Below, in pieces: positions 2 to 33,495 of a DNA stretch of 37,419 bases (the first letter of the stretch is position 1; every line of letters starts with the position of its first letter). The stretch is taken from assembly GCA_903920215.1 (NCBI GenBank), contig CAIXLG010000036.1:1-37419 (forward strand). The letters are read 5' to 3'. The translations under genes and the position numbers were made by a program. The notes under the pieces are model-generated. The model saw nothing but the letters and a program-made list of their open reading frames with translations, was not told where the DNA came from and made no database searches. The DNA comes from an uncultured Chlorobiaceae bacterium. Lineage in GTDB: Bacteria; Bacteroidota; Chlorobiia; Chlorobiales; Chlorobiaceae.

Positions 2-202
2 ACAGATGTCGTTGACGAGGTCAACAAACTTGTTCCATCCATCCGTGAAAAATTCCCCGACATCGTCTTCTTTGGCGGACAGCTTGTCTTTACCAACGAA
101 ACAATCATGGATCGCTGGCTGCACAATTACACCGTTTTTGCCGTACAGCAGAACCTCTATGTCCACGGTATTCCCTTTGTGATTCTGCCGGTTAAGGTAT
201 AG
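2..202 (+). CDS. C-terminal end of a membrane permease (APC/KUP-like, possibly K+ transporter), partial
   Basis: The reading frame enters from the left edge and stops at TAG 200-202, leaving 66 residues. The visible part is the soluble C-terminal tail. It ends with an LHNYTVFAVQ stretch and then GIPFVILPVKV. From memory, bacterial APC-superfamily permeases and KUP-type K+ transporters have tails of this kind, with a Leu-His-Asn turn and a hydrophobic strand ending in LPxxV. The transmembrane part lies outside the window, so the substrate cannot be read. Potassium is suggested by the context: the next three genes form a copy of the sensing module of the kdp locus further right. An amino-acid permease remains possible. 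Confidence 0.5.
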   Translation, partial: TDVVDEVNKLVPSIREKFPDIVFFGGQLVFTNETIMDRWLHNYTVFAVQQNLYVHGIPFVILPVKV

Positions 203-245
203 CACTGTAAAGGTTCTATCAGCAATACATGCATGAAGGATACCT

Positions 246-2078
246 ATGATCAGCATACGACAAAAACTTCTGCTCGGGTTTGGAGGCCTGCTCCTCATTG
301 TCGCTGCAATGGGTCTCTTGACTATACGTCAAATCGACTCACTTGGGGGAGCCATCGATGTTATTCTCAGGCAGAACTATAGAAGTGTTCTCGCTTGCCA
401 GAAAATGTCGGAATCCCTTGACCGTATCGACAACGGAGTGCTGTTTACCTTTACCGGGCATTATGAGCAAGGCATGGGAAATATTCAGTTGCACAACAAG
501 GAATTCCTCCATGCGTTACAGGTCGAACTAGGCAATATCACCCTGCCTGGTGAACATCAGAAAGCCATGCAGATAAGGGCACTGTTTACGGAATACACCA
601 GGGTTATCTCCCTGATTACCGACCCGAAAGTATCGCTTTCAGAAAGACAAAACCGTTATTTTTCCGATCTCCTGCCCCTGGTTCACCGAATGAAGCTGCT
701 TTCCAGCGAAGTGCTTGAAATGAACCAGTCCAATATGCAACGGGCGAACAATAATGCCTGGAAAATGGCTGCCTCAGCGCATAACAACGTGCTTGTTGCC
801 ATCATTGCCAGTGCGTTTATCGCTCTGTTGTTCAGTTATCAGTCGCATCGATGGATTCTTATGCCGATTAAAAAGCTCATTGCCTCGGCGGAGGAAATCC
901 GGAAGGGTAACCTTGATCTTGTGCTTGATACCACCTCCAAAGATGAAATCGGTCAGCTTTCAGGGTCGTTCAACGAAATGGCGGCGACTCTGCGCAAAAT
1001 TCGTAAAAGTGACAGGGATGCGCTCGTTCGGACAAGAAAAGCCACACAGGAAGTATTCAAGGTACTCCCTTCACCAATAGCAGTGCTCGACAGTGACGGT
1101 GAAGTAGAAGTTTCAACCGAATCCGCTGAGCACTTTTTCGGATTAAAACCGGGAGTAAATGTAAGAGATCTTGGTCGTGAGTGGTTGCTTGTTTTGTGGC
1201 AAAAAGCTCTGCGACAGGGTTCTTTGGCAGAATCTGAAGAGGGTAATGGTTTTATCCAGCATTTTGCAGATAATCAGGAGCATTTTTTTCAACCAATGGC
1301 ACTCCCTATTCCAGCAGGAGATGAAAGTCTCAGCTTTGCAGGAACCGCCTTGATATTTAAGGATGTTACCAAAGAGCATGAACAACTGGAGCTGAAACGA
1401 AGTGTCATTTCTACAGTATCCCATCAGTTGAGAACTCCTTTGACTTCGTTGAGAATGTCGATCCATCTCCTGCTTGAGGAACGTATAGGTCAGCTGAATG
1501 AGAAGCAGGCTGATTTACTTCTTGCAGCACGGGACGAAAGTGAGCGCCTTGTAAACATCATTGACGATCTCCTGGATATTAACCGTATTGAATCAGGGAT
1601 GGCTCATTTGGACATTAAAGCTGTTTCGCCTTCACATCTTGGCATTGAAGGAGTTGAGTCGTTTCTTGTCCAGGCCACAGATCAAGGCGTGACCATCGTC
1701 AACGCTATCCCGGAAGGGTTGCCTGATGTAATGGCTGATTCTGACAGCATCCTGTATGTGTTTGCCAATCTTTTGTCGAATGCCTTGCGGTTTACTTCGC
1801 CTGGTGGAACAGTAACGATAAGCGCAGTTCGGAATCAGAACAACATACGGTTTTCCGTTGAAGATACTGGTGAGGGTATATCTCCCGAACACATGGAGCA
1901 CCTTTTTGAACAGTTTTACAGGGTTCCCGGTCAGCAGCAGAAAAGCGGGATAGGACTGGGGCTCTCTATCGCCAAAGAAATTGTTGAGGCTCATGGCGGC
2001 AAGGTTAGCGCCGAAAGTGTCTATACAAAAGGTTCTGTTTTTCATTTCACCCTTCCTTTCAAGAAAGAGATTATCTGA
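246..2078 (+). CDS. KinB-like membrane histidine kinase (HAMP-PAS-HisKA-HATPase)
   Basis: 610 residues. TM1 lies at about 8-28, followed by an extracytoplasmic helical region of about 150 residues, TM2 at about 180-200, and HAMP at about 200-255 (ending near KDEIGQLSGSFNEM). A PAS-like domain covers about 265-375. The HisKA H-box is STVSHQLRTPLTSL with phospho-acceptor His393, and the HATPase has an N-box NLLSNALRF, a G1 box EDTGEGI and a G2 box GIGLGLSIAKE. It would phosphorylate a response regulator in response to an envelope signal. No regulator gene is adjacent, so the partner may be one of the NtrC-type regulators at 32128-33495 or 35474-37009. It is a clear paralogue of the kinase at 30060-31934 throughout, starting with RQKLL at the N-terminus. 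The start has AAGGA a few bases upstream. The upstream permease ends 43 bases earlier, so the genes may be co-transcribed. Confidence 0.9.
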   Translation: MISIRQKLLLGFGGLLLIVAAMGLLTIRQIDSLGGAIDVILRQNYRSVLACQKMSESLDRIDNGVLFTFTGHYEQGMGNIQLHNKEFLHALQVELGNITLPGEHQKAMQIRALFTEYTRVISLITDPKVSLSERQNRYFSDLLPLVHRMKLLSSEVLEMNQSNMQRANNNAWKMAASAHNNVLVAIIASAFIALLFSYQSHRWILMPIKKLIASAEEIRKGNLDLVLDTTSKDEIGQLSGSFNEMAATLRKIRKSDRDALVRTRKATQEVFKVLPSPIAVLDSDGEVEVSTESAEHFFGLKPGVNVRDLGREWLLVLWQKALRQGSLAESEEGNGFIQHFADNQEHFFQPMALPIPAGDESLSFAGTALIFKDVTKEHEQLELKRSVISTVSHQLRTPLTSLRMSIHLLLEERIGQLNEKQADLLLAARDESERLVNIIDDLLDINRIESGMAHLDIKAVSPSHLGIEGVESFLVQATDQGVTIVNAIPEGLPDVMADSDSILYVFANLLSNALRFTSPGGTVTISAVRNQNNIRFSVEDTGEGISPEHMEHLFEQFYRVPGQQQKSGIGLGLSIAKEIVEAHGGKVSAESVYTKGSVFHFTLPFKKEII

Positions 2079-2116: not shown

Positions 2117-2209
2117 ATGAACGTTTATCATTACTTGTTTTTTGGAATACTTATCTTTTTTATCCTCGCAGGAGCCGCTGGAGTGATAGGTATTTTATTG
2201 CATCATTAA
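2117..2209 (+). CDS. 30-residue single-span membrane peptide (KdpF-like position)
   Basis: ATG 2117 to TAA 2207-2209, preceded by a strong ribosome site (AAGGAGG at 2100-2106). The peptide is one hydrophobic helix with a short polar start (MNVYHY) and a His-His end. KdpF is a single-span subunit of similar length that stabilises the KdpABC pump. In the kdp locus of this window kdpF lies directly after the paralogous kinase, exactly as this peptide follows its own kinase. I infer a KdpF-derived or functionally similar small membrane subunit acting with the adjacent permease or kinase. Sequence identity with KdpF is too short to judge. The strong SD and tight spacing (38 bases after the kinase stop, about 50 before the next start) argue that it is really translated. 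Confidence 0.6.
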   Translation: MNVYHYLFFGILIFFILAGAAGVIGILLHH

Positions 2210-2257: not shown

Positions 2258-3883
2258 GTGGAAAGTAACAGGAACGACAGCTTTTTGCGTCTCATCCAGC
2301 GCTCGCAAAAAGGAAAGCTCAAAATTTATCTCGGTTACTCTTCAGGGGTTGGCAAAACCCTTGCGATGCTTCAGGAGGCGGAACGTCTCCATGAAAACGG
2401 TATTGATATTGTAGCTGGTTTTGTTGAGACTCATGAAAGAGGGGAGTTCGCATCCCTGCTTTCGAAGCTTGAGCTTATCCCCCGTAAAAAACAGATGTAT
2501 AGAGGGATAGAAATTACAGAGATGGATATTGACGCCATTTTGCAGCGCCAGCCATCGGTTGTTCTTGTTGATGAACTTCAGCATTCTAATGTACCGGGAA
2601 GCAAAAATGCCAAACGTTATGAAGATGTTGAGGAGATTCTTGCTGCCGGTATCCATGTAATTTCGACATTGAATATCCAGCATCTCGAAAGTCTCTATGA
2701 AACGGTTGAACAGGTTACTGGTATAAGGGTGAAAGACCGGGTGCCTGATCGGCTTTTGTCGCAGGCTGAACAGCTTGTCAATGTGGATATTACCCCCGAT
2801 GATTTGCGGCAGCGCCTGATTGAGGGAAAAATCTTTTCACCCGGCCAGCCAGGGACTCTTGTATCAGACTTTTTCAAGCCTGAAAGTCTTGAGCAGCTTC
2901 GTGAGTTGACTCTTCGGGAACTTGCTTCTCACATTGATTTGAAAAGGCGAACGCAACTCGCAGATGAATTTCCTTCGAATCCTGATCAAATTATGGTATG
3001 CCTCAGTTCGCATAGCCTGAACGGTGAGGCACTTGTTCGCTATGCATCGAGAATAGCGGGACGATTGAATAAAAACTGGTATGCCGTCTATGTGCAGAAG
3101 CTTGCAGAGAACTCTCCTGTATTGGATGAGGGATCGGATCACTGGGTTGCGGAGACTCTCGGTCTAGCCCGTGAGCTTGGCGCGGCAGTTTTTAACTATA
3201 AAGGTGATGATGCGGTGAAAACCATTCTGCAGTTTGCCCGGGAATACCGGGTCGGACATATCATTATTGGTAATTCGGGAGGAACACTTCCTTTGTGGCA
3301 GCGCATACAAGGGAAAAAGAGCGTTGTTGAACGATTGATTGATGAGTGTCGGGATATAAGTGTAACGGTCTTTGATACCCGGCAGGGTGGAGCTTCCGGT
3401 TCATCTCAGGGCAATGAAGCGCCCCTTGTCATGAAGAAGGATATTTCCAGGTTCGATAAATTGCCGCACAATGAATGGAAAGAGCTGGTCAGGAATGCAA
3501 AGGTGGTTGTTCTGGATGGTGTTGTTGAGCAAAAAAAAGCCTTCAGGCTGTTGCTTCATGAGTGCTGCATGGCTCGCCCCGATATCGATGAAGAGGAGGC
3601 ATGGAAGAGATTATTGGAGCGTGAAAAACAGGGTGGAACCTATGCCGGGTCGGAGATTGGAATACCCCATGCCAGACTCGATGGTCTGAAACAGCCAGCG
3701 GTTATTATCGGAGTAAGCAAAAGCGGGGTGTATGACAAGGAGTCGAAAAATAGAGCCCGTATTATTTTCCTTGTGCTCACCCCGATTTCAGATCCGAACG
3801 GTCACATCAAGATACTTGGCGTCATCAGCAACATGGCTTCTGACACTCAGTGGCGCAATGCCATGCTGCAAGAGGCGGGTTAA
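2258..3883 (+). CDS. Transmitter-less KdpD sensor fused to USP and PTS EIIA domains (copy 1)
   Basis: 541 residues from GTG 2258, chosen because AAGGAG lies about 7 bases upstream and the product then begins MESNRNDSFLRL, colinear with the copy at 23772-25451. An upstream ATG at 2210 would add 16 residues. Domains: KdpD N-terminal domain (about 15-225) with Walker A GYSSGVGKT at 26-34 and DELQH at 104-108; universal-stress domain (about 245-385); PTS EIIA type-2 domain (about 415-541) with phospho-acceptor His471 in IPHAR. The four TM helices, GAF and kinase transmitter of full KdpD (about 890 residues) are absent. In E. coli the KdpD N-domain tunes kinase activity and unphosphorylated EIIA-Ntr binds KdpD. 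I infer a regulatory adaptor for the upstream kinase. The canonical DELAHTN motif is altered to DELQHSN here. Confidence 0.9.
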   Translation: MESNRNDSFLRLIQRSQKGKLKIYLGYSSGVGKTLAMLQEAERLHENGIDIVAGFVETHERGEFASLLSKLELIPRKKQMYRGIEITEMDIDAILQRQPSVVLVDELQHSNVPGSKNAKRYEDVEEILAAGIHVISTLNIQHLESLYETVEQVTGIRVKDRVPDRLLSQAEQLVNVDITPDDLRQRLIEGKIFSPGQPGTLVSDFFKPESLEQLRELTLRELASHIDLKRRTQLADEFPSNPDQIMVCLSSHSLNGEALVRYASRIAGRLNKNWYAVYVQKLAENSPVLDEGSDHWVAETLGLARELGAAVFNYKGDDAVKTILQFAREYRVGHIIIGNSGGTLPLWQRIQGKKSVVERLIDECRDISVTVFDTRQGGASGSSQGNEAPLVMKKDISRFDKLPHNEWKELVRNAKVVVLDGVVEQKKAFRLLLHECCMARPDIDEEEAWKRLLEREKQGGTYAGSEIGIPHARLDGLKQPAVIIGVSKSGVYDKESKNRARIIFLVLTPISDPNGHIKILGVISNMASDTQWRNAMLQEAG

Positions 3884-8433: not shown

Positions 8434-8741
8434 GTCGCCAATGTAGTTGAAGCCATGGGAAAGAGCCTGACCTTTGGTATCCGAGAACATAAAAAGCGCG
8501 TATCAAAATGTCAGAAACCGTATTGGTCGAACTCCAAACAGTAGATGGATACTATGCGCAAGCCGACTTGTTAGCTGGTCGGCTTTGCTTTTGATCGCAA
8601 TATATGGACTCACAACAAAAAAAAGAAGAACACATCAATAAGCTTTAACTCATTATTATTGTTTATTGAGCAAAAATTTAACAGGATATTCTATTTCAAT
8701 AATGTAAGTTCTTGTAGATTTCCTTAATAAAAGACTTGATA
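8434..8741. other. Gap between precursor and B gene, with a hairpin
   Basis: About 300 bases without a convincing gene. A 29-codon frame from ATG 8452 has no support. A strong hairpin at 8558-8592 may attenuate transcription between the precursor and maturation genes. DNA becomes markedly AT-rich after about 8600. Confidence 0.5.
8558..8592 (+). terminator. Hairpin after the lasso precursor gene
   Basis: GCAAGCCGAC (8558-8567) pairs with GTCGGCTTTGC (8578-8588, one bulged T) around a ten-base loop, followed by TTTT. It could be a terminator or attenuator that gives more precursor than enzyme mRNA, a common arrangement in RiPP operons. Confidence 0.65.
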
Positions 8742-9491: not shown

Positions 9492-11288
9492 GTGTTTATT
9501 GCAGGCTTTTTTAACCAGGTTTCTGATAATATATTCAGTAAATTAGATGCTATTGTAGGGGACAAAATATGTGGAGAGAGGGTTTATTTTAAGAATAAAC
9601 TAGTAAGTATTGTTGTCGGAAAAACATCTTCTTCTGTAGATCAAGGCAGAATAATAAGCCTTGATAATATTTTATTGGTAGGCAAGGTCTTTAGTAAAAT
9701 AAGTTTTCATTCAATAACAAAAGAAGATTTAGAGAAACAATCATCAATACCTAATAATCTTTTTGTAAATAAATACTGGGGTAACTATATTTATGTAAGA
9801 GTAAAAGATAATCAAGTAACAGTACTTCGAGATCCTGTAGGGCAAACCCCATTGTTCTATACTAAATTAGATTCAGGAGAATACTTATTTTCATCTGAGA
9901 TTGAAACCTTGGTTGATATGTTGAAAACCCGCCCTGGATTTAATTGGAAATATTTTTCTTCTTACGCATTACATGCATTTATTACAACAGAACAAACAGC
10001 TTTTAATGAAATTTATGAGCTGCCACATGGGTGTCAAATCTCCTACAACTCTACAAAGGGAATTACGGATACTTCTATAGTCTGGAACCCACTAAACTAT
10101 TTCAGTGGCTATAAAGGCTCGGAAAATGCAATGAATAATATTGTAAATATAACTTCAAATGTTATTGAAAGTTGGACTAATAGCGCCGATGTAATATCCC
10201 TAGACTTTTCAGGGGGCACTGACTCTACAGCTATTCTTTTGTTATTAAATAAGATACTAAACAAGAATAAAGAGATAAGGCTAATAAATCAATATCATCC
10301 TGACGTTTCGTCTTCTGATGAAAGGAAGTATGCACGTGCGATAGCAATGGACTTAGGCCTTCATTTAATAGAGTTTGATCATTCGGATAGTTTACCGTAT
10401 GACCCTGCCGTGAAATCAGCGCGATTTAAACCTAATTGGCCAACATCAATCTTATCCTATTTGAAAGTTAACAATGATATAAGTTCTTTGTTAGAAGGAA
10501 GTAAGAATGTTACCTATATGAGCGGACACGGAGGAGATCATATATTTATGTGTCCTCCTCCAGTAACATCTCTTTGTGATTACTTAATTGAAAAAGGTGG
10601 AAAAGAATTTAATACAAAAGCAATGGAGCTATATGCCATATTTCGCGAGCCGTTATCTTCAATGGCAAGCAATATACTTAAAGGCTTCATTTCTTATTAT
10701 TTTCACTCACAGTACACCCAATCATTTTATGCTATCAACAAAATCAAAAGCGCCCCTTGGTTTAATAAAGAAGTCTATTTGTTAGAAAAGCAAATGCATT
10801 ACCATCCTTTTTTTGATAATGAAAAAACCACTAAGAGCTTGCCTGGAAAATTTTGGCTTATTGAGGGCATATACAGCGGTTTATCTACTATAAAGACAGA
10901 TATAAGGGATGATGGAACTAACCCAATATTTTTTCCTTTATTTTCGCAGCCACTATTAGAACTCGCGTTATCTATACCCACCTATGAGTCATATCGCTAC
11001 GGGCACAATAGATATCTTTTCAGAAAAGCTATAAGTGATACTTTCAAAAGTGATGCTGTTTGGAGACACGATAAGGGAGAAACTAGCGGCATTGAACAAA
11101 GGGGTATAAAAAGAAATGAAAAACGAATATTGGAGCTTTGTTTAGATGGGAATTTGGTGAAGCAAGGATTAGTAAACAAAGAAAAGCTGCACACAGGTAT
11201 GCTTAAGATAATGAATGGTCAAACGGATTACCAATGGGCAGTTACTGATATAATTTGTGCAGAAACATTTATAAATTTATGGAGCTAA
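9492..11288 (+). CDS. Lasso peptide C protein: asparagine-synthetase-like macrolactam cyclase
   Basis: 598 residues from GTG 9492, with AAGGAG about 8 bases upstream and directly after the TAA of the B gene. The N-terminal half follows the class II glutamine amidotransferase fold (ELPHGCQISY near 176-185), but residue 2 is Phe instead of the catalytic Cys, so it cannot release ammonia from glutamine. The C-terminal half is the ATP-dependent synthetase domain with PP-loop SGGTDS at 240-245. In lasso biosynthesis this enzyme adenylates the ring Glu or Asp side chain and joins it to the new N-terminus of the core. The acceptor would be Glu9 of the core encoded at 8377-8430. Length matches the family. 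Confidence 0.9.
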   Translation: MFIAGFFNQVSDNIFSKLDAIVGDKICGERVYFKNKLVSIVVGKTSSSVDQGRIISLDNILLVGKVFSKISFHSITKEDLEKQSSIPNNLFVNKYWGNYIYVRVKDNQVTVLRDPVGQTPLFYTKLDSGEYLFSSEIETLVDMLKTRPGFNWKYFSSYALHAFITTEQTAFNEIYELPHGCQISYNSTKGITDTSIVWNPLNYFSGYKGSENAMNNIVNITSNVIESWTNSADVISLDFSGGTDSTAILLLLNKILNKNKEIRLINQYHPDVSSSDERKYARAIAMDLGLHLIEFDHSDSLPYDPAVKSARFKPNWPTSILSYLKVNNDISSLLEGSKNVTYMSGHGGDHIFMCPPPVTSLCDYLIEKGGKEFNTKAMELYAIFREPLSSMASNILKGFISYYFHSQYTQSFYAINKIKSAPWFNKEVYLLEKQMHYHPFFDNEKTTKSLPGKFWLIEGIYSGLSTIKTDIRDDGTNPIFFPLFSQPLLELALSIPTYESYRYGHNRYLFRKAISDTFKSDAVWRHDKGETSGIEQRGIKRNEKRILELCLDGNLVKQGLVNKEKLHTGMLKIMNGQTDYQWAVTDIICAETFINLWS

Positions 11289-12866: not shown

Positions 12867-13373
12867 TTATCCAAGCCTGACTCTTAAATCGCGAAGCATT
12901 GCAAATGTATTAAGATACTCGACATTAAAAGCATCACAAACATTAGGAATAGGGATCCTTCTTCTTATAGTCGAATTATACTCCTCGTGCGTTACTACGA
13001 CATAATTGTAAACAGCAGCATAGGCAACTAACCAGGAGTCAGCCAGATCAAACCGGGCAAATTCAGCTTTTGCTGAGGGTGAGTACTGCACATGTCTTTG
13101 AGACCATACCATAATTTCAGCATATTTAGCAAGTACCAGGGCATCGTCACATGTCACAAAAGAATCAATAAATGACCCATTTATCCAATCAACTAATTGA
13201 TCAGAACCACGATTAATTTCATTCTTTACATGATCAATACTTTTTAATTTCTCATTATCAGCTTGAATTAACAATTTATCCCAAAATACAGGGGCAATAT
13301 CAAAGGCATAATAATGACGTGCGGCATTAATCAAGACATTGGCATCCAATAGAAATATTAAAGAGTTACTCAT
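12867..13373 (-). CDS. PIN-domain ribonuclease-like toxin (DUF4411 type)
   Basis: 168 residues. The N-terminal strand FLLDANVLINAARH carries the first acidic residue (Asp10). Further conserved acidic residues are in HVKNEINRG (Glu52) and FDLADSWLVAYA (Asp109, Asp112), and THEE lies near 128-131. This is the layout of PIN nucleases of the DUF4411 group, which are usually paired with an XRE/ImmA-type metallopeptidase. Its ATG overlaps the stop of the upstream gene by four bases (13370-13373), indicating translational coupling. It probably acts as an RNase toxin in the cytoplasm. Confidence 0.82.
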   Translation of the reverse strand: MSNSLIFLLDANVLINAARHYYAFDIAPVFWDKLLIQADNEKLKSIDHVKNEINRGSDQLVDWINGSFIDSFVTCDDALVLAKYAEIMVWSQRHVQYSPSAKAEFARFDLADSWLVAYAAVYNYVVVTHEEYNSTIRRRIPIPNVCDAFNVEYLNTFAMLRDLRVRLG

Positions 13374-14524
13374 ACTTTCTTCCCAAATATCTCATCAGCA
13401 TAAGTTTGAAATGTATCACGCTTCAATCCCGTTAAATGATAGGCTTCGGTATAAGCTGTTTTCCCCTCACGAACCGATTGAATCAACATTTGCCCAAAGC
13501 GGTTACCAATTCGAAGGTTCTGTGTAGGATAAAAATCACCACCACCGGCATCAGATTTTTTTTTCGCTGCAAGCTTAATCTCTCTGCTTTGCCAGTCACG
13601 ATAATAATGGAAAAAAACCTTTCTCTCTATAAGCCCAAGATCCAGGCATCGTCGTGCAGCAACAATCTCACTAACCTTAAAATGCCTTGCTATATTTTGA
13701 AAACGATTAGCATTGCCTCCAATTGCAGGCCAGAGATTTATCAGTAGTGTTGTTGGCACTAGAAATTCAGCGGCAATTTGGTTACAAACCATTTCGGCAG
13801 AATCAGCTGCAGGTTGCAGTCGACGTAAATCGAATGCAGCACTGATACCAAGCCAGAGGTGAGCCAGTTCATGAGCCAAGGTAAACATCTGCGCTGCTTT
13901 TCCATCTGCCCCATTGACAAAAACCAAGGGCGCATATTGGTCAACCAAGACGAATCCCCTGAATTCCTGAGGATCCAGTTTGCGAGAAGTGTTATTTCCA
14001 ACCACACCGTTAACCATAACCATAATTCCAGCCTCTTCAATCTTCCTCTCAAGCCCCCTTAATGCATCAGACCATGTTGGCTGACTTTTTGCCCAACCAT
14101 CATTAATGCCTAATACTTTCCTGATTTGGGCAGCAATATCTATGGGATTATCAGTAATTGATGCAGAGCCAATAAAAGGTAATGGAGCATGCCCCTGCTC
14201 AGTCAAGCAGTCCCGCATCCATGCCTGCCGTTGTTGCATCTTGTAAACGGTATCAAGAAGTTCAGGACTGAATTCTTGTACTGTCTCACTTGTCAATGTC
14301 CTGAAGTTTGTAATAGGTAAACTTTCTTCAGGTGGGCTTGTGAGTAATAAATATCCAAATGGAACCGCGGCAGCTTTTGCAAAATCCTGAAGTTGAAGAA
14401 AAGTTGGCTGAGCCGTTCCGCTAAGCCACGCGCCTATTTTTTTGAATTTATGTTCCAATTTCTCCTGTCGGCGAGACCGTTGTATCGCCCACTCAAGAAC
14501 TTGGGGAGTAATAGCAATCCGCAT
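13370..14524 (-). CDS. XRE/ImmA-IrrE family protein with HExxH metallopeptidase motif (antitoxin partner)
   Basis: 384 residues from ATG 14524; GTG 14530 would add two. The N-terminal 65 residues resemble a short HTH module (KIGAWLSGTAQPTFLQLQDF). The C-terminal ImmA/IrrE domain has the zinc motif HELAH at 218-222 within FTLAHELAHLWLG. ImmA cleaves repressors in other systems. Here, in front of a PIN gene with a four-base overlap, it is expected to control or neutralise the toxin. Such pairs (COG2856 with DUF4411) are found in mobile or variable regions, matching the surrounding remnants. Confidence 0.85.
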   Translation of the reverse strand: MRIAITPQVLEWAIQRSRRQEKLEHKFKKIGAWLSGTAQPTFLQLQDFAKAAAVPFGYLLLTSPPEESLPITNFRTLTSETVQEFSPELLDTVYKMQQRQAWMRDCLTEQGHAPLPFIGSASITDNPIDIAAQIRKVLGINDGWAKSQPTWSDALRGLERKIEEAGIMVMVNGVVGNNTSRKLDPQEFRGFVLVDQYAPLVFVNGADGKAAQMFTLAHELAHLWLGISAAFDLRRLQPAADSAEMVCNQIAAEFLVPTTLLINLWPAIGGNANRFQNIARHFKVSEIVAARRCLDLGLIERKVFFHYYRDWQSREIKLAAKKKSDAGGGDFYPTQNLRIGNRFGQMLIQSVREGKTAYTEAYHLTGLKRDTFQTYADEIFGKKV

Positions 14525-14647
14525 TACCACATACCAAATAAAATTTCGAAGGAAAACGGCAGAAATATTTTAATACTCAAAGCCACTGTAGGGAGCGTCT
14601 CCCAATTTAACAAAAACATTGAGTATTCTGGTGAAAGTGTACCACTG

Positions 14648-22928: not shown

Positions 22929-23333
22929 ATGAAAAAAATTGAGGCTATCATTCGGGCAAGCAAGTATGAAGAGTTGAAGCAAGCTCTCCATGAGATTGAT
23001 GTTGATTTCTTTTCCTGGTGGGACGTTACCGGCCAGGGTAATGACACAAAATTCAAAAAAGAAATCTTCCGGGGGAGTATCAGAGAGACGTCGCTCATTT
23101 CCAGGCGATTACTATCAATCGTTGTGCGCGACATTAATTTCGAGAAAACCATCAAGTGTATTTTAAAGCATGCGCCGACCGGAGAGGTTGGAGACGGCAA
23201 GATCTTTGTCTCTGAGATTTCAGGAGCCTACAGAATCCGGACTGGTGAAAGCGGTGATGAGTCACTGTTCATTAAAGACTCATCATTACATGCATATGAT
23301 TTCCATGAATCATCAGCAGCAGCTCAACGTTAG
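22929..23333 (+). CDS. PII-family signal transduction protein (divergent T-loop)
   Basis: 134 residues. MKKIEAIIRASKYEELKQAL at the start and TGEVGDGKIFV with AYRIRTGE near 95-115 are the PII signatures (B-loop and C-terminal strand), so it should be a trimer binding ATP/ADP and 2-oxoglutarate. The T-loop differs from GlnB/GlnK: WDVTGQGNDTKFKKEIFRG has Phe47 where Tyr51 of E. coli GlnB is uridylylated, so control by GlnD-type modification is unlikely. The C-terminus is about 20 residues longer than GlnB. No ammonium transporter gene is adjacent; instead it sits next to the end of the kdp locus. Probably transcribed from the sigma-54 promoter at 22531. Confidence 0.88.
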   Translation: MKKIEAIIRASKYEELKQALHEIDVDFFSWWDVTGQGNDTKFKKEIFRGSIRETSLISRRLLSIVVRDINFEKTIKCILKHAPTGEVGDGKIFVSEISGAYRIRTGESGDESLFIKDSSLHAYDFHESSAAAQR

Positions 23334-23771: not shown

Positions 23772-25451
23772 TCATTTCTTTTTCTGTTCAGCTAACCAGT
23801 ATCGAATAATGTGCATGACCTCCTCTTCTGAGCCGGCTTGACGCATGGAGGCTCGCCATTGGCTGTCTCCAGCCATTTTGCAGAGCATCCCAAGCAGCTT
23901 GACGTGACTGTCAGGTTGAGTGACTGGCGAGAGCATGAGAAACATAAGTGTTGCCGTATTGTTGGATCCGGGATCATAAATTCCGAGCTTGCTGACCCCG
24001 ATTGCAAGAACGGCAGATTCAATCCCTTCAAGCCGGGCATGGGGTATGGCAATTTCTTCGCCGATAAAGGTTACTCCCTGTTTTTCCCGTTCGAGTATCG
24101 CTCTCCATGCATAATCGAACGGAATCGAGGAGTGCGTCGTGCAAAGCTTTTCGAGCAACTGGCGAATGGCAACATCCTTTTCAAGCACCTCATTCCAGAG
24201 CAGAACATTGGCCTGAATAATCGCACTCTCCCTGTCGTCCGGCGGCGGCTGTTTACTCGGCAGATTGAAAGGAATACCCGAGAGATAATCGGCGGCGCGT
24301 TTTTTCTTTTGGAGATTATCCTGGCTGCGAATGTCAGGCACGATTATGGTGATCCCTAGACTCTCCTGTATCAGTCGTTCTGTTATACTGCGCCTGCCGA
24401 TCAAACGGTGCCAGAGGGGAACCTGTTTTCCTGAATTGCCGACCACAATATTGCCAACTCTGTACTCTCTGGCGAACTGAAGGACGGTTGAAACAAAATC
24501 GTTGCCCTTGTAGGTAAAAACGGTTGCTCCGAGCTGCTGGGCAAGGGCAAGAGTATTGGACAATTTGCGCTGGATGCCGGCATCGATCATTTCAGGGCTT
24601 TCTGAAAGGCTCTGGACATAGACGGCATACCAGTTGCGGTTCAGTCGGCCGGCGATTCGTGAAGCATATCGCAGCAAGGCCGCGCTGTTTTCCGACTTTG
24701 AACTGAGGCAGACCATAACCTGATCCGGACTGGTTGACGGCTCATTCTGCTCGGGGCTGCTGCGCTTCGAGTCGATTTGGGCAACCACCTCACGAAGGGT
24801 CAGTTCTCTGAGCTGTTCAAGATTTTCCTGCCTGAAAAAATTCAGGAGCGCCGACTCAGTCTTGCCTGCCATATAGACTTTTCCCTCTTTCATGCGCTGC
24901 AAGAGGTCATCCGTTGCGATATCGATATTAACCAGTTGATCAGCCTGAATCACCATCCGGTCGGGTAAACGCTCCTTGACCTTGACGCCGGTGGCCTGCT
25001 CGACGGTTTCATAGAGGCTTTCCAGATGCTGGATGTTGAGTGTCGAAACCACATGAATCCCGGCCGCCAGAATCTCCTCGACATCCTGATACCGCTTCGC
25101 ATTCCTGGAGCCAGGAACATTGGTATGGGCAAGTTCGTCGACCATTATCACTGCCGGATGACGCTTTATAATGGCATCGATGTCCATTTCCGTAATTTCA
25201 ATGCCCCGATAGGTCAACTTTTTCCGGGAAATGATATCAAGGCCATCGAGCAGGGCTTCCGTCTCTTTTCTGCCGTGTGTTTCGACAATACCCACAACGA
25301 CATCGACCCCTTGTCCGAGAAGACGCTTTGCTTCGAGCAGCATCTGGTAGGTTTTTCCTACGCCGGCGCAGTACCCGAGGTAAATCCTCAGGCGACCGCG
25401 CTGCGAGCGTTGTATCAAGCGCAGAAAGCTATCCGCCCTGTTTTCTTCCAT
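23772..25451 (-). CDS. Transmitter-less KdpD sensor fused to USP and PTS EIIA domains (copy 2, kdp locus)
   Basis: 559 residues, start ATG with GGAGG upstream. KdpD N-terminal domain about 15-225: Walker A GYCAGVGKT (26-34), DELAHTN (105-111), both canonical. USP domain about 245-385. EIIA domain about 420-555 with His471 in IPHAR. It lacks the membrane, GAF and kinase parts of E. coli KdpD (894 residues). The last gene of the kdp run, it follows kdpC by 21 bases. Known biology: EIIA-Ntr binds KdpD and controls kdp expression in E. coli. Here the two partners are one polypeptide. It likely acts on the KinB-like kinase at 30060-31934 or directly on the pump; which one is not shown. Confidence 0.92.
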   Translation of the reverse strand: MEENRADSFLRLIQRSQRGRLRIYLGYCAGVGKTYQMLLEAKRLLGQGVDVVVGIVETHGRKETEALLDGLDIISRKKLTYRGIEITEMDIDAIIKRHPAVIMVDELAHTNVPGSRNAKRYQDVEEILAAGIHVVSTLNIQHLESLYETVEQATGVKVKERLPDRMVIQADQLVNIDIATDDLLQRMKEGKVYMAGKTESALLNFFRQENLEQLRELTLREVVAQIDSKRSSPEQNEPSTSPDQVMVCLSSKSENSAALLRYASRIAGRLNRNWYAVYVQSLSESPEMIDAGIQRKLSNTLALAQQLGATVFTYKGNDFVSTVLQFAREYRVGNIVVGNSGKQVPLWHRLIGRRSITERLIQESLGITIIVPDIRSQDNLQKKKRAADYLSGIPFNLPSKQPPPDDRESAIIQANVLLWNEVLEKDVAIRQLLEKLCTTHSSIPFDYAWRAILEREKQGVTFIGEEIAIPHARLEGIESAVLAIGVSKLGIYDPGSNNTATLMFLMLSPVTQPDSHVKLLGMLCKMAGDSQWRASMRQAGSEEEVMHIIRYWLAEQKKK

Positions 25452-25472: not shown

Positions 25473-26075
25473 CTATCGGGGAACCATAGTGGTTTTCCCG
25501 GCTGCATCGAGTTCCATGTTCAACACCAGCACATTGACCAAGCCCTCTCCTGACCCCAGGATCTTTTGTCCGTCAGCGTGGCGACGTATTGCCGCCTCGA
25601 CATCTGAAAGAGCCATCCCTCTGGCATGAGCAACCCTCGACGCTTGAAAAAGAGCTGCCCGAAGGGTAATGAGGGGATCAAGCCCGCTGCCGGATGTTGC
25701 AGCAAGATCCGCAGGAAGAGGGTGCCGGGAGTCGGCACCATACTCTTTAACTGTTTTCAGCGCACGTTCGCGCACTTCGGGACCTGCAGGAGAGAGATTG
25801 CTTCCCCCTGCTGCTTCTGCGGTGTACTTTACAGCCGATGGACGTGGCCAGAAATAGCCCGGCTTCGTGAATGCCTGGGCAATAAGCCTGCTGCCGACAA
25901 CTTTTCCTGCCTGGTTTCGAACCAGTGAGCCTGAAGCGGCCTCTGGCACTGCAAAGTGGGCAAAGCTGAATATGAAGAGCGGATAGAGCCCACTGCACAG
26001 CACAATAGTCGCAAGTGCAATTCTGAGCGATGCCGCAATATTGGCTCCTGTATCTTCCATAAGTGTGGTTTTCAT
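25473..26075 (-). CDS. kdpC: KdpC, potassium-transporting ATPase C subunit
   Basis: 200 residues, typical of KdpC. One N-terminal TM helix (about 17-38, ALATIVLCSGLYPLFIFSFA) followed by a periplasmic domain with SLVRNQAGKVVGSRLIAQAF, FWPRPSAVKYTAEAAGGSNL and SGLDPLITLRAALFQASRVA, all KdpC hallmarks. It stabilises the KdpFABC complex and raises nucleotide affinity. The ATG has AAGGAG upstream and lies 14 bases after kdpB. Confidence 0.95.
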   Translation of the reverse strand: MKTTLMEDTGANIAASLRIALATIVLCSGLYPLFIFSFAHFAVPEAASGSLVRNQAGKVVGSRLIAQAFTKPGYFWPRPSAVKYTAEAAGGSNLSPAGPEVRERALKTVKEYGADSRHPLPADLAATSGSGLDPLITLRAALFQASRVAHARGMALSDVEAAIRRHADGQKILGSGEGLVNVLVLNMELDAAGKTTMVPR

Positions 26076-26089
26076 GTGATGGTACTCCT

Positions 26090-28207
<2,118 letters not shown>

Positions 28208-29881
28208 TTATTGAATAGAAGTCGAAAGATAGTCGGCTACCGGTCCAAGCACTGCGACAGGCATGAAGAGCAGTGCGCCGATCAGAAGCACGCTTCCAAG
28301 AATGACGACAGCAAAAAGCGGGGTATCAATGCGAAGCGTCCCCGTGGTTTCCGGAACAGGTTTTTTTGCAGCCATTGAGCCTGCGATTGCCAGCGGTAGA
28401 ATGATGGGGATAAAACGCCCCAGCAGCATGACCAGTCCTGTGGCTATATTCCATGGCACTGTACCGTCGCCGAGGCCTTCGAATCCCGAGCCGTTGTTGG
28501 CTGCCGCCGAACTGAACTCATAGAGAATCTCACTGAATCCATGTGCGCCCTTATTGAGCACGGTGCCTGCACCCCAGGTGGTGGATGCGAACAGGGCGGT
28601 CCCGACAAGGATCAGTAGCGGATGGACCAGCAGCGCTAGCAGTGCAAGCTTCATTTCATGTGTTTCCACCTTTCGGGCACAGTATTCGGGTGTCCTTCCG
28701 ACCATCATGCCGCAGATGAAGACTCCGACGATAATGAAGATGAACATGTTGATGAATCCTACCCCCACGCCACCGAAAATCACATTCAGCCACATGCCTG
28801 CGAGCGGCACCAGGCCGGTTAGCGGATTGAGGCTGTCGTGCATGCAGTTGACTGAGCCATTGCTGGTAGCTGTTGTGACGGCAGCCCACATTGCAGCTGT
28901 TCCGGAAGGTCCGAAACGCAGCTCTTTACCTTCGAGATTCGATACGCTCTCAATTGGCAATCCCTTGAAAGCCATAGCAGGAGAGCTTTCCAGATTGAGC
29001 GCGATGCCCGATTTCAGGACGAGCAGCAGAAGCATTACAGAAAAAATCACTGCGGCATGGCGCATCCGACCGGTTATGCGTCCGAACATCCATACTGTTG
29101 CCATAGCAATCAGAGGAATGCTTATACATTCGATATAATTGGTCAGAAACGATGGGTTTTCGAAAGGATGCGTCGAGTTGGGACCGAAAAATCCGCCTCC
29201 GTTCGTGCCGAGCTGTTTGATGGCTACCATTGCTGCCACCGGTCCCCGGGCGATGGTCTGCATCGCTCCTTCGAGCGTTCTGGCTGCGGCTGCTCCTTCA
29301 AATGTCATGGGCACTCCTCCAACAACGAGGAGAAGAGCTACCACTATCGAAAGCGGCAGCAGAATGAAGAGGGTTGAGCGGAGCAGATCGCGGTAAAAGT
29401 TGCCGACAAGTGTTCTGCCTGCCAGTGACCTGGCCAATGCGGTAAAGCAGGCGATGCCCGTTGCGGCTGAAACAAACTGCAGCCAGGTCAGGGCGAAAAG
29501 CTGGGAAAAATAGCTCATCGAAACTTCACCGGCGTAATGCTGCAGGTTGGTGTTGGTCACAAATGAAGCCGCCGTATTGAAAATAAGGCTTGCTTCAAGA
29601 GGGCCCCTGCCGTCAGGATTGAGTGGAAGCATCTGCTGCAGCGCAAGCATGAGGACAACAGCAGTGAACATGATGGCGTTGAAGAAGAGCATGGAGATCA
29701 GGTAGCCTTTCCAATCCTGTTCTCTGTCGAGCATCCTTCCGCCGGTTTTTCTCAGAAGGATTTCCATCCGGCCATCACTGGAGTTGATCGGAGGATTCAT
29801 GACTGCTGTCATGAAACGGCCCAGCGGCCATGAAAGCAGAACAGGCAAGGCAATAAAGAGAAGCAGCATGAGTAGTTGCAT
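28208..29881 (-). CDS. kdpA: KdpA, potassium-translocating subunit
   Basis: 557 residues from ATG 29881, the same length as the E. coli protein. The open frame extends 40 codons further upstream, but that part lies over kdpF in another frame and lacks a ribosome site; AAAGGAG (29889-29895) precedes the chosen ATG. Selectivity-filter loops are visible: NTAASFVTNTNLQHYAGE, LGTNGGGFFGPNSTHPFENP, TTATSNGSVNCMHDSLNPL and AAANNGSGFEGL. It selects K+ and forms the pore of the KdpFABC complex in the inner membrane. Confidence 0.96.
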   Translation of the reverse strand: MQLLMLLLFIALPVLLSWPLGRFMTAVMNPPINSSDGRMEILLRKTGGRMLDREQDWKGYLISMLFFNAIMFTAVVLMLALQQMLPLNPDGRGPLEASLIFNTAASFVTNTNLQHYAGEVSMSYFSQLFALTWLQFVSAATGIACFTALARSLAGRTLVGNFYRDLLRSTLFILLPLSIVVALLLVVGGVPMTFEGAAAARTLEGAMQTIARGPVAAMVAIKQLGTNGGGFFGPNSTHPFENPSFLTNYIECISIPLIAMATVWMFGRITGRMRHAAVIFSVMLLLLVLKSGIALNLESSPAMAFKGLPIESVSNLEGKELRFGPSGTAAMWAAVTTATSNGSVNCMHDSLNPLTGLVPLAGMWLNVIFGGVGVGFINMFIFIIVGVFICGMMVGRTPEYCARKVETHEMKLALLALLVHPLLILVGTALFASTTWGAGTVLNKGAHGFSEILYEFSSAAANNGSGFEGLGDGTVPWNIATGLVMLLGRFIPIILPLAIAGSMAAKKPVPETTGTLRIDTPLFAVVILGSVLLIGALLFMPVAVLGPVADYLSTSIQ

Positions 29882-29892
29882 AAAGAACTCCT

Positions 29893-29973
29893 TTAAAATT
29901 TTTCGGGTGACACAACGGCGATCATGAGATAGACCGCACAGGCAACAAGAACTGGTAAGACGAAATACTCCAT
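29893..29973 (-). CDS. kdpF: KdpF, small membrane subunit
   Basis: 26 residues (MEYFVLPVLVACAVYLMIAV and a VSPEKF tail), a single TM helix ending in a short polar tail as in KdpF. ATG at 29971-29973 preceded by GGAGG. The stop at 29893-29895 overlaps the ribosome site of kdpA, the usual kdpF-kdpA arrangement. Confidence 0.85.
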   Translation of the reverse strand: MEYFVLPVLVACAVYLMIAVVSPEKF

Positions 29974-30059: not shown

Positions 30060-31934
30060 TCATGCCCGTCCGTTTATCGGAAGCTCACCGGTTGAAACCT
30101 GATGTTTATGGATCGGCAACGTGAAGCTGAACAGGGATCCCTTACCTGGCTGGCTTTGTGAAAAGACCATCCCGCCTTGAGCTTCGACGAGCTCCTTGAC
30201 TATGGAAAGCCCCAAGCCGACACCGGAACGCACATCCTGACCAGGCGCCCTGAAAAACTGCTCAAACAAATAAGCCATGTGTTCAGAAGCAATTCCTGAT
30301 CCAGTATCTTCGACGAAGAATCGGACAAAGTTCTCCACCCTTCCGGCTCCTACCCTCACGGTTCCGCCGGGGCTGGTAAATCGCAGAGCATTGGAAAAGA
30401 GATTTGCAAAAACATGCCGGATACCTACCGGGTCAGCAAATACATCCGGCAAGTCATCGGCTATGGCCTCCGTAAGGGTGACGTTGCGGTCTTTAGCCTC
30501 ACTCAAAAAAGGCTCCATGCTTTCCCGAACAAGAAGGGAAGGCTGCACTGGTCGGGGTTCAAGGTATGCCTTGCCCGATTCGATACGGTTGAGATCGAGC
30601 AAATCATCGAGCATTTCGACAAGGCGCTCACAATCTTCCCGGGCTCCAACCATCAATTCGGTCTGTTGCGTATTCAGGACACCTACCTCTTCTTCAAGCA
30701 GCAGGTGAATCGACATGCGCAGCGAGGTCAGTGGAGTTTTGAGCTGATGCGACACCGTGGAGAGCATCCCCTGCTTCATCTCCTGCTGTTCGTGCATTTG
30801 CGTCACATCGCTCATTATCAGAATTGTGCCGTCGCCATCACCTGATTCCGGATCTGATGTTGAGATGATTGGCACTGCTTCAGGCTTGAAGAAATATTCC
30901 TTGTTGCTGACGAATTGCTGCACATAACCCTTGTCGTCAAGGGAAGCAGGTTTCCGGGTAGCAAACGATTTGTCAAGCAGCCCCGAAATCCAGGAAAATG
31001 GAAGTTCTCTTGCCGAAACTCCCGGTTTCAGGCCAAAAAGCTGGACTGCCGTTTCGGTTGAAACCCTGACCTCTCCTTGTGAATCAAGCACAGCAACCGG
31101 CACAGGTAATACTCGGAACACATCTTCTGTCAACTTGCGGCTCCGGATCAGATTCGCCATATCACTGTTACGATTCTGACGGAGAGCAATCAGCATGGCA
31201 TTGAACGAACGCGACAGCTGACCTACTTCATCATGGGCAGCCGTCTGCAGAACAACTTCAAGATTGCCGCGGCGGATCTCTTCTGTCGTTTCAATCAAAC
31301 GCCGTAAAGGATGGAACACCCAACGGTGAATTTGATAACTCAGCAGTATGGAGAAGAGAACGCTGGCCAAACTGACGGAAAGCATCCTCCATCGGGCTGA
31401 AATCGCCAGGCTTTGTGTCGCATTTTTTTCTGTAATCATGTTTGCCTGATTCATATTGAGAATCTCCTGGGCAACTTTTTTGATTTCGTTGAATACTGGT
31501 ACCTGCCTTGTGAAATAGAGCGTCCGGCGATCCGGCTCGCTTATTGAACTCTCCATAACCTTGGGAAGTATGCTGAAATACTCTTTTGACAGATGCTGAA
31601 TCCGATCAGCACGCTCCTGCTCGCCCGGCAAGGTGATAAGGTGCAGTTCGCGATCAAGTGCATTGATGAACTTCGCTTTATGTTTGTTCACCATTATCTG
31701 CATATCCTTGTCGTGATTGCCGAGAAACGAGTTAAGCTCCGCACTGTTGATACTGTCCAGCGCATCTTTCATATCCTGAGAGGCCACCACGCTCTGGTAA
31801 TTCTCTTTCAGTACGATGGCCAGGGATTTTCCGAGCATGTCGATCTGGCGGATGGTCACAAAGCTGATTGCTGCAACGATGACCAGCATGCCGCTCAATC
31901 CGAACAAAAGTTTCTGTCTGATTCCGATTTTCAT
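30060..31934 (-). CDS. KinB-like membrane histidine kinase of the kdp locus
   Basis: 624 residues. TM1 about 9-29, extracytoplasmic region to about 180, TM2 about 185-203, HAMP about 205-258, PAS-like about 265-385, HisKA with His396 in STVSHQLKTPLTSL, HATPase with NLFSNALRF, EDTGSGI and GVGLGLSIVKE. It replaces the kinase half that is missing from the KdpD-like protein and has no KdpD similarity itself. Probable partner: the NtrC-type regulator directly upstream (gap about 190 bases). Paralogue of the kinase at 246-2078. kdpF begins 86 bases downstream. Confidence 0.92.
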   Translation of the reverse strand: MKIGIRQKLLFGLSGMLVIVAAISFVTIRQIDMLGKSLAIVLKENYQSVVASQDMKDALDSINSAELNSFLGNHDKDMQIMVNKHKAKFINALDRELHLITLPGEQERADRIQHLSKEYFSILPKVMESSISEPDRRTLYFTRQVPVFNEIKKVAQEILNMNQANMITEKNATQSLAISARWRMLSVSLASVLFSILLSYQIHRWVFHPLRRLIETTEEIRRGNLEVVLQTAAHDEVGQLSRSFNAMLIALRQNRNSDMANLIRSRKLTEDVFRVLPVPVAVLDSQGEVRVSTETAVQLFGLKPGVSARELPFSWISGLLDKSFATRKPASLDDKGYVQQFVSNKEYFFKPEAVPIISTSDPESGDGDGTILIMSDVTQMHEQQEMKQGMLSTVSHQLKTPLTSLRMSIHLLLEEEVGVLNTQQTELMVGAREDCERLVEMLDDLLDLNRIESGKAYLEPRPVQPSLLVRESMEPFLSEAKDRNVTLTEAIADDLPDVFADPVGIRHVFANLFSNALRFTSPGGTVRVGAGRVENFVRFFVEDTGSGIASEHMAYLFEQFFRAPGQDVRSGVGLGLSIVKELVEAQGGMVFSQSQPGKGSLFSFTLPIHKHQVSTGELPINGRA

Positions 31935-32127
31935 GATTCAATCTTTATCTGCTCTTTTACAAATAACGTGCCAGACACAGAATCAAGGAAAACCGGGTAG
32001 ATGCGGTCGATAAAGAGGGGATTCGGGGTGTAAATTGCACGGTCGCCAAGGGCGTGAGAGTGCAAAATTCAACGTCCACCAGTGGGCAGCGTCAAAATTG
32101 AAACAAGAGGGGGAAAGGGGAGTGCGA
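31935..32127. promoter_or_regulatory. Intergenic region between regulator and kinase with an inverted repeat
   Basis: AAATTGCAC (32032-32040) and GTGCAAAATT (32060-32069) form an imperfect inverted repeat with a 19-base spacer. TTGCAC/GTGCAA half-sites resemble the TGCAC-type half-sites used by NtrC-family regulators. No sigma-54 promoter with proper spacing was found here. Confidence 0.3.
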
Positions 32128-33495
32128 TTAAAGCCCGAACTGCTTGCGTTTTCTCCAAAGTGTTGCCTTGTCGATGCCCAGTACCTCAGCAGATTCCTGT
32201 ACTGAGGAGGTCGAAGCAAGTACCCTGCGAATATGCAGCTCTTCGAGAGTTTCCAGCGTTATTCTATCACCGATTTTAATCTGTGGCGGCAAGGTGGAGG
32301 CAATTGTTTCGGGTAGAAGTTCTTCACCGATAACAGCGGTCGTACAAAGGATCACCGCCCGTTCAACCACATTTCGGAGCTCGCGGATGTTGCCCGGCCA
32401 GCCATAATCGCGAAAAATGCGCAATACCTCAGGGCTGAATCCCTGAATGGCCTTGTGGTTCTGGGCATTGAAAAATGCAAGCATGTTTCCGGCAATCTCT
32501 TCGACATCCCCTGAACGCTCGGCCAGGGAAGGAAGCGTTATCTGAATAACATTGAGGCGATAATAGAGATCCTCGCGGAAACGACCTGAAGCCACGGCGG
32601 ACTCCAGATCAACATTTGTGGCTGCAATAATACGAACATTTGCTTTTCGGGTGTGCTGATCGCCGACACGCTCATATTCCCGCTCCTGAATGAAACGCAG
32701 CAGTTTCGACTGGATTGGAAGCGGAAGTTCACCTATTTCATCAAGGAAAAGGGTTCCACCCTCGCAACTTGCGACACGCCCGGGATTGTCTCGAAGAGCG
32801 CCGGTAAACGCTCCCTTTACATGACCGAACAGCTCGCTTTCAAGAAGCTCCTGGTTCAGTGACGGGCAGGAAATAACACCGAATGGTTTGTCGGACCTAT
32901 GACTCCATGAGTGGATGAATCGGGCAATCATGGTTTTTCCCGTACCACTCGGTCCCCTAAGCATCACAACCGCATCGGAAGCTGAAACCTGTCGGGATAG
33001 TTCTATCACCCTTTGCATTGGCGGGTAACTGGAGCGCAGTGATGCATCCGGATCTTTACGGTTCAGATCGTCCTGAAGAAGGGTGATGCGCTGTTCAAGC
33101 ATCCGGATTGAAGCAAGTCTTTCAAGAACGAGTTTGAGCTGACCCGGCATAAATGGTTTTGGCAGATAATCTGCAGCCCCGCGTTTCATCGCTTCAACAG
33201 CTGTATCCACTGATGCGAAAGCCGTTATGACGACAATCTTCAGCCATGGTGACTGGGCCAGCAGAGAAGACACCAGATCAAGTCCACTCTCCAGGCCTAA
33301 CCGGATATCTACGAATGCAATATCGAATATCTGTAACCGCGCCTCAGTCAAGGCATCCTGAATGTTGGATACCGTAGTGACTTTGTGATTCCTGATCTCG
33401 AAAAACATCATCATGGTTTTTCTGATGTTGCTCTCGTCATCAACGATCAAGACATTCATTGTGGCAGTGGACATCTCTTTTCCTTCACTCTTCAT
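32128..33495 (-). CDS. NtrC-family sigma-54 response regulator of the kdp locus
   Basis: 455 residues. REC domain with phospho-acceptor Asp63 in FVDIRLGLESG; AAA+ domain with Walker A GPSGTGKT, GAFTGA loop (contact with sigma-54) and Walker B GTLFLDEIGE; C-terminal Fis-type HTH (ESAEVLGIDKATLWRKRKQF). It is the first gene of the kdp run and takes the place of the OmpR-type KdpE. ATG 33495 has AGGTGA upstream; a second in-frame ATG (33474) with GGA-AAGAG is also plausible. If it drives kdp, a sigma-54 promoter would be expected; I found none upstream of kdpF or of this gene. Confidence 0.92.
   Translation of the reverse strand: MKSEGKEMSTATMNVLIVDDESNIRKTMMMFFEIRNHKVTTVSNIQDALTEARLQIFDIAFVDIRLGLESGLDLVSSLLAQSPWLKIVVITAFASVDTAVEAMKRGAADYLPKPFMPGQLKLVLERLASIRMLEQRITLLQDDLNRKDPDASLRSSYPPMQRVIELSRQVSASDAVVMLRGPSGTGKTMIARFIHSWSHRSDKPFGVISCPSLNQELLESELFGHVKGAFTGALRDNPGRVASCEGGTLFLDEIGELPLPIQSKLLRFIQEREYERVGDQHTRKANVRIIAATNVDLESAVASGRFREDLYYRLNVIQITLPSLAERSGDVEEIAGNMLAFFNAQNHKAIQGFSPEVLRIFRDYGWPGNIRELRNVVERAVILCTTAVIGEELLPETIASTLPPQIKIGDRITLETLEELHIRRVLASTSSVQESAEVLGIDKATLWRKRKQFGL

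What the first reader, a model, noticed from the sequence alone, without database searches (positions are those of the whole stretch)
23772..25451. Natural fusion of KdpD N-domain with a PTS EIIA domain, without kinase
In E. coli, EIIA-Ntr physically controls KdpD. Here the interacting partners are in one chain while the histidine kinase is a separate protein of a different family. It implies that phosphorylation of His471 by a PTS relay could report energy or nitrogen state to K+ uptake. No EI or HPr gene is visible in the window.
Basis: partly seen in the sequence, partly recalled or inferred. Interest (0 to 1): 0.72.

Follow-up and report, generated by a model that had tools for sequence, protein, structure and literature searches.

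The report
PTS-tailed KdpD regulator of potassium uptake
In green sulfur bacteria and some sulfate-reducer relatives, a potassium-pump regulator has lost its histidine-kinase half and gained a sugar-phosphotransfer (PTS) domain, which may let the cell's energy state switch potassium uptake on or off.

Summary
The fusion is real. The minus-strand ORF 25451-23772 (559 aa) is KdpD N-domain (17-225), Usp-like domain (244-362) and EIIA-Ntr-type domain (416-550). A 57%-identical paralogue lies at 2258-3883 (+). Full-length relatives occur in 42 of 86 Chlorobiaceae genomes (44 with two fragments) and about 22 of 395 from a Desulfobacterota sample, so it is no artefact.

Three readings need correcting. 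E. coli PtsN binds KdpD's transmitter, not its N-domain. The N-domain is itself an atypical serine kinase that inactivates KdpB (PMC11018627), and its Walker residues are invariant here. EI has no GAF, so nitrogen sensing is not implied.

The gene ends an operon HK-kdpFABC-fusion with a conserved sigma54 promoter, an upstream palindrome and an NtrC-type regulator gene. Some loci put the KimA K+ transporter beside or instead of kdpABC; five genomes carry the fusion without KdpB. Chlorobiaceae carriers lack c-di-AMP synthase (0 of 35).

Best explanation: a PTS-gated serine-kinase/adaptor that throttles K+ uptake. Phosphorylation and targets are inferred. New variant of a known kind (short, HK-less KdpD). 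No paper found describes it.

The parts
23772..25451 (-). FUS1: KdpD N-domain + Usp-like + EIIA fusion, 559 aa
   Evidence: 67-row alignment
24777..25403 (-). KdpD domain (atypical serine kinase fold); Walker A G-X5-GKT at 25376-25350, Walker B Asp105/Glu106 at 25139-25134
   Evidence: 2r8r E 2.4e-65; invariant in 67/67
24366..24722 (-). Usp-like domain with SKS-X20-WYAVY (resembles the c-di-AMP motif of S. aureus KdpD)
   Evidence: fold match 7ji4; motif recalled from own knowledge
23802..24206 (-). EIIA-Ntr-type domain; His471 codon 24041-24039; Arg455 and His516 are the equivalents of PtsN Arg57 and His120
25473..26075 (-). kdpC
26090..28207 (-). kdpB; TGES Ser185, equivalent of E. coli Ser162, codon 27655-27653
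28208..29881 (-). kdpA (start about 29881)
29893..29973 (-). kdpF-like 26-aa membrane peptide
30060..31934 (-). HK1: membrane histidine kinase with 4-helix sensor, HAMP, HisKA and HATPase_c; not KdpD-type
31958..31974 (-). sigma54 -24/-12 promoter CTGGCACGTTATTTGTA, 24 nt before HK1 ATG
   Evidence: same place in 21 of 35 relative loci
32035..32065 (.). palindrome TTGCAC-N19-GTGCAA, likely enhancer site of the response regulator
   Evidence: 0.01 expected by chance
32128..33495 (-). NtrC-family sigma54-dependent response regulator (GAFTGA present)
2258..3883 (+). FUS2: paralogous fusion (541 aa, GTG start), EIIA tail shortened, Trp39-equivalent is Leu
246..2078 (+). HK2, paralogue of HK1 (51% identical)
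2..199 (+). C-terminus of a KimA-type K+ transporter; complete in the near-twin genome G061
2117..2209 (+). 30-aa single-TM peptide between HK2 and FUS2

Best explanation
The protein is a short, HK-less KdpD carrying an added PTS input. When K+ is scarce, the membrane kinase HK1 and the NtrC-type regulator open a sigma54 promoter and make HK1, KdpFABC and the fusion together. The fusion's KdpD domain is an atypical serine kinase that phosphorylates Ser185 (TGES) of KdpB and stops the pump once K+ is sufficient. The EIIA domain takes a phosphoryl group from PEP through EI and HPr at His471, and its phosphorylation state raises or lowers the braking activity, or moves the protein between transporter and kinase. 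In KimA loci the same module serves KimA or the kinase instead. Shown: architecture, operon, conserved promoter, conserved catalytic residues, PTS genes, transporter swap. Inferred: serine kinase activity, His471 phosphorylation, and the direction of control.
For: The E. coli KdpD N-domain alone phosphorylates KdpB, and a natural KdpD/Usp protein from Deinococcus does so too (PMC11018627). Its key residues (G-X5-GKT, Walker B Asp-Glu, Arg190 equivalent) are invariant in 67 of 67 fusions. The TGES Ser is present in 40 of 41 linked KdpB proteins. The gene directly follows kdpC in both phyla. His471 and Arg455 67/67, His516 54/67. EI, HPr and PtsN in the genome; EI in 43 of 46 fusion genomes. The known input of short KdpDs, c-di-AMP, is missing: 0 of 35 Chlorobiaceae carriers have a diadenylate cyclase, whereas 19 of 19 genomes with short KdpD without EIIA do. 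sigma54 promoter and RpoN.
Against: Five fusion genomes at least 91% complete (G051, G066, G069, G071, G084) have no KdpB, so KdpB cannot be the only target. The FUS2 clade has Leu at the adenine-binding Trp39 position. Most non-Chlorobi carriers keep a diadenylate cyclase (22 of 26), so EIIA did not simply replace c-di-AMP. Twelve Desulfobacterota fusions have Gln instead of His516. No experiment exists on any member.
Confidence: 0.45

Rival explanations
1. Split KdpD controlling transcription: the fusion is the detached sensory half, and its EIIA domain docks on the transmitter (DHp) of the separate kinase HK1/HK2, as PtsN does on E. coli KdpD, so the PTS state sets kdp or KimA expression.
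For: E. coli KdpD N-domain complements the C-domain in trans (Heermann 2000, cited in PMC3610689); PtsN binds the transmitter. HK and fusion co-occur: both in 42, fusion only in 2 (both at contig breaks), HK only in 9, neither in 45 of 98 genomes. It explains fusion genomes without KdpB.
Against: The kinase also lives stably in RR-KimA-HK units with no fusion (at least nine loci), so it does not need the fusion. The kinase is not KdpD-type.
Confidence: 0.3
2. The EIIA domain acts directly on the transporters (KdpFABC, KimA), like E. coli PtsN on TrkA and YcgO; the KdpD/Usp part is mainly a nucleotide-binding scaffold.
For: Precedents reviewed in PMC13104625. The transporter next to the fusion is swapped between kdpABC and KimA. 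EIIA-only descendants of a fusion persist in genomes with KimA-HK2 but no FUS2.
Against: Walker residues stay invariant even in KimA-only loci, so the KdpD part is not idle. The EIIA-only genes are not next to KimA.
Confidence: 0.15
3. The EIIA domain is a relic or pure binding domain that is not phosphorylated.
For: FUS2 has a shortened EIIA; His516 is Gln in 12 Desulfobacterota members; the domain is only about 33% identical to the genome's own PtsN.
Against: His471 and Arg455 invariant in 67 of 67 across two phyla; EI in nearly all carriers; EIIA is the best-modelled part and keeps the PtsN fold.
Confidence: 0.1

Closest known systems
Short KdpD/Usp atypical serine kinase (D. geothermalis KdpD, PMC11018627; NCBIfam NF038185 'KdpD-like non-kinase potassium sensor')
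   Same: KdpD N-domain plus Usp, no histidine kinase, linked to kdpABC, all ASK residues
   Different: Extra EIIA domain; scores 349 bits against the NF038185 cut-off of 550; no diadenylate cyclase in Chlorobiaceae carriers; sigma54/NtrC-type control
E. coli / rhizobial PtsN acting on KdpD (PTS-Ntr)
   Same: EIIA-Ntr-type domain with conserved active His, linked to Kdp regulation; rhizobial ptsN2 even lies in the kdpDE cluster (PMC13104625)
   Different: Fused to the KdpD N-domain rather than free; the histidine kinase is of another family; EI lacks GAF
Split kdpD systems (D. radiodurans kdpD-N plus SK, PMC5716572; Alicyclobacillus, cited in PMC11018627)
   Same: KdpD N-half and histidine kinase on separate chains beside kdp genes
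   Different: There the kinase is the C-terminal half of KdpD and the regulator is KdpE-like; here an unrelated HAMP kinase and a sigma54 activator
KimA K+ transporter (PDB 6s3k)
   Same: Permease in the second locus and in relatives (E 2.7e-66)
   Different: In a sigma54 RR-KimA-HK(-fusion) cluster in DAC-free genomes

Membership tests
KdpD (osmosensitive K+ sensor) N-domain family | PF02702 above its cut-off | tested here: met
   302 bits against 26.1
Full-length KdpD histidine kinase | TM/GAF and HisKA/HATPase_c on the same chain | tested here: not met
   no such domains; 369 bits against the KdpD equivalog cut-off of 1123
Short KdpD/Usp atypical serine kinase | Walker A G-X5-GKT, Walker B Asp-Glu, Arg190 equivalent | tested here: met
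   67/67
Short KdpD/Usp atypical serine kinase | aromatic at the Trp39 position | tested here: inconclusive
   Y/W/F in 59 of 67; L in the seven FUS2-type rows, C in one
Short KdpD/Usp atypical serine kinase | phosphorylates KdpB Ser162 | not testable with these tools
   target TGES Ser kept in 40/41 linked KdpB
NCBIfam NF038185 KdpD_non_kinase | score over curated cut-off | tested here: not met
   349 (FUS1) and 325 (FUS2) bits against 550
EIIA-Ntr (PtsN)-type domain | PF00359 domain with active-site His and Arg57 equivalent | tested here: met
   71.2 bits; His471 and Arg455 67/67; 1a6j TM 0.81
EIIA-Ntr (PtsN)-type domain | PtsN equivalog cut-off (TIGR01419) | tested here: not met
   52.3 bits against 138.7
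PTS-Ntr | EI with N-terminal GAF sensor (PtsP) | tested here: not met
   single EI, 599 aa, no GAF
c-di-AMP-controlled KdpD | diadenylate cyclase in the genome | tested here: not met
   none in G000 nor in 35 Chlorobiaceae carriers; met in 22 of 26 other carriers
sigma54-dependent operon | -24/-12 element, RpoN, NtrC-family activator | tested here: met

The most novel reading that the evidence does not exclude
A sigma54-controlled K+ signalling module in which a PEP-driven PTS domain, rather than K+ or c-di-AMP, gates a KdpD serine kinase, and in which the same regulator has been re-targeted from the Kdp pump to the unrelated transporter KimA.
Probability: 0.3. Interest if true: 0.8.

Novelty: new variant of a known kind. 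Interest (0 to 1): 0.6.

Why it matters
Short KdpDs lack the K+-sensing parts of E. coli KdpD, and the only input known for them is c-di-AMP. These bacteria have the short form but, in Chlorobiaceae, no c-di-AMP synthase. A fused EIIA domain offers a concrete, testable input: PEP/energy status, plausible for phototrophs whose energy follows light. It would also link PTS, sigma54 and two non-homologous K+ transporters in one module, and give a fixed-stoichiometry system for the disputed PtsN-KdpD-K+ relationship.

Tried and rejected
c-di-AMP as the signal: the Usp domain has a matching-looking motif and fold (7ji4), but no diadenylate cyclase exists in this genome or in any tested Chlorobiaceae carrier. 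EIIA as a plain replacement of c-di-AMP: rejected as a general rule because 22 of 26 other carriers keep the cyclase. Fusion as a dedicated KdpB kinase only: rejected because five KdpB-free genomes keep it. Assembly artefact: rejected by 66 distinct full-length homologues. Recent fusion of the genome's own PtsN: unlikely (33% identity; fusion EIIA domains group together, but with only three outgroup rows). sigma54 promoter for the FUS2/HK2 locus: none found; the best site there lies inside KimA coding sequence. AlphaFold model: poor for residues 155-242 (mean pLDDT 63, 18 sequences), so domain packing was not used. Literature searches for the fusion found nothing, in an open-licence library only.

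Full report
OBSERVATION. The ORF lies on the minus strand, 25451-23772, 559 aa. It has a KdpD domain (17-225), a weakly scoring Usp-like domain (244-362) and a PTS_EIIA_2 domain (416-550). No histidine-kinase domain is present. Sequence and fold searches agree: KdpD N-domain 2r8r, PtsN 1a6j, and the KdpD Usp domain 7ji4. A second copy with the same architecture (57% identical) sits at 2258-3883 on the plus strand; these two are the only KdpD domains in the genome, which is 99.7% complete.

SPREAD. The window belongs to a Chlorobium-like genome: the nearest named record is 'Chlorobium sp. isolate L227-2013-22', 98% identical. A profile of 18 fusions found full-length copies in 42 of 86 Chlorobiaceae genomes, plus two cut fragments, and in none of 12 other genomes of the class (family counts are mine from its table). 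In a sample of 395 genomes from the phylum of L022 (a record titled Desulfobacteraceae) 21 were full length and one was split by a frame break. KdpD/Usp proteins of about 380 aa without EIIA occur in Planctomycetes, Archangium and Ignavibacteria, so the HK-less form itself is widespread and already named (NF038185; PMC11018627).

CONSERVATION. In 67 aligned fusion rows His471, Arg455 (PtsN Arg57 equivalent), Walker A (Gly26, Gly32, Lys33, Thr34), Walker B Asp105/Glu106 and Arg186 (KdpD Arg190 equivalent) are invariant; His516 is His in 54, Gln in 12, missing in one. The Trp39 equivalent is Y, W or F in 59; it is Leu in the FUS2-type clade that includes window FUS2. The reference numbering of PtsN and KdpD residues follows PMC11018627 for KdpD and my own counting on the 1a6j alignment for PtsN.

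PTS. The genome encodes one EI (599 aa, no GAF), two HPr and one stand-alone PtsN-type EIIA. EI was found in 43 of 46 fusion genomes; the three misses are 80, 88 and 91% complete. The missing GAF argues against the glutamine/2-oxoglutarate sensing described for PtsP in PMC13104625.

OPERON. In transcription order: NtrC-family response regulator, HK1, kdpF-like peptide, kdpA, kdpB, kdpC, fusion. A sigma54 site CTGGCACG-N4-TTTG lies 24 nt before the HK1 start. A strong site (score 12.7 or more of 15.7, 24-36 nt before the start) is present in 21 of 35 related HK loci; control upstream regions of the RR and KimA genes have none, and of the fusion genes one, in L146. A palindrome TTGCAC-N19-GTGCAA lies 131-101 nt before the HK1 start (0.01 expected in the window), with similar repeats at about the same position in most other HK1-type loci. 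RpoN is present and the regulator has GAFTGA. The same cluster occurs in Desulfobacterota at roughly 40-73% protein identity.

TRANSPORTER SWAP. Layouts seen: RR-HK-kdpABC-fusion; RR-KimA-HK-kdpABC-fusion; RR-KimA-HK-fusion; and RR-KimA-HK without fusion. The permease is a KimA homologue (6s3k, E 2.7e-66). The window's second locus is the third layout, cut by the contig start; its near-twin G061 has it complete. Five fusion genomes (G051, G066, G069, G071, G084; 91-100% complete) have no KdpB above cut-off. In G024, G028 and G042 stand-alone EIIA genes occur, and the two placed in the tree (G028, G042) group with the FUS2 clade (100/98 support); these genomes have RR-KimA-HK with no FUS2 beside it. 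This suggests the EIIA part can act apart from the KdpD part. That is inference.

HK CO-OCCURRENCE. Over 98 genomes: HK and fusion 42, fusion only 2 (both at contig ends), HK only 9, neither 45. Shared ancestry inflates such counts.

SIGNAL INPUT. The only known input to short KdpDs is c-di-AMP (PMC11018627). None of 35 tested Chlorobiaceae carriers has a diadenylate cyclase. Nineteen of 19 genomes with short KdpD but no EIIA have one, including G090, the one non-Chlorobiaceae genome of the class with a short KdpD. Of 26 non-Chlorobi fusion carriers 22 have one. So the fusion arose in, or spread among, lineages with c-di-AMP, and in Chlorobiaceae EIIA is the only recognisable input left.

MECHANISM. 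Most likely a PTS-gated serine-kinase brake on K+ uptake (0.45). Support is by homology to an experimentally shown activity (PMC11018627), residue conservation, the TGES Ser in 40 of 41 linked KdpB proteins, and gene linkage. The direction of control is not predictable: dephospho-PtsN is the active form in E. coli and rhizobia, phospho-PtsN in P. putida (PMC13104625). The KdpB-free genomes show there must be at least one other target.

VERDICT. Class: new variant of a known kind; I found no paper describing the EIIA fusion, its sigma54 control or its KimA linkage, in a library without most subscription journals.

Noticed in passing
window 22929-23333 (+); also L024/L145, L139, L157, L198, L201: A PII-family protein (PF00543, 75.7 bits) ends about 440 bp from the fusion and recurs beside kdp or KimA modules in relatives; its T-loop looks unusual.
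   Followed up: partly
window 2-2078 and L198-L203: A KimA-type K+ transporter forms a stable sigma54-regulator/KimA/histidine-kinase cluster in many Chlorobiaceae, also without the fusion.
   Followed up: partly
L136 7487-8152, L137 6278-6958, L138 5308-5928: Stand-alone EIIA proteins, two of which group with the FUS2 clade: apparent fission products, located upstream of a cysteine-synthase-like gene in L136 and L138.
   Followed up: partly
window 2117-2209 (+): 30-aa single-TM peptide between HK2 and FUS2, in the place where kdpF-ABC sits in the other locus.
   Followed up: no
L141 (G052): kdpB appears shortened (562 residues matched) and kdpC missing between HK and fusion: kdp decay beside an intact KimA gene.
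   Followed up: no
window 12867-14530 (-): DUF4411 protein next to an IrrE/M78-type peptidase, resembling a toxin-antitoxin pair.
   Followed up: no
window 8736-11288 (+): Transglutaminase-like protein next to an asparagine-synthase-like protein, as in lasso-peptide maturation pairs.
   Followed up: no
window 7086-7793 (-): Fragment of an IS630-like transposase (HTH_33 + DDE_3).
   Followed up: no
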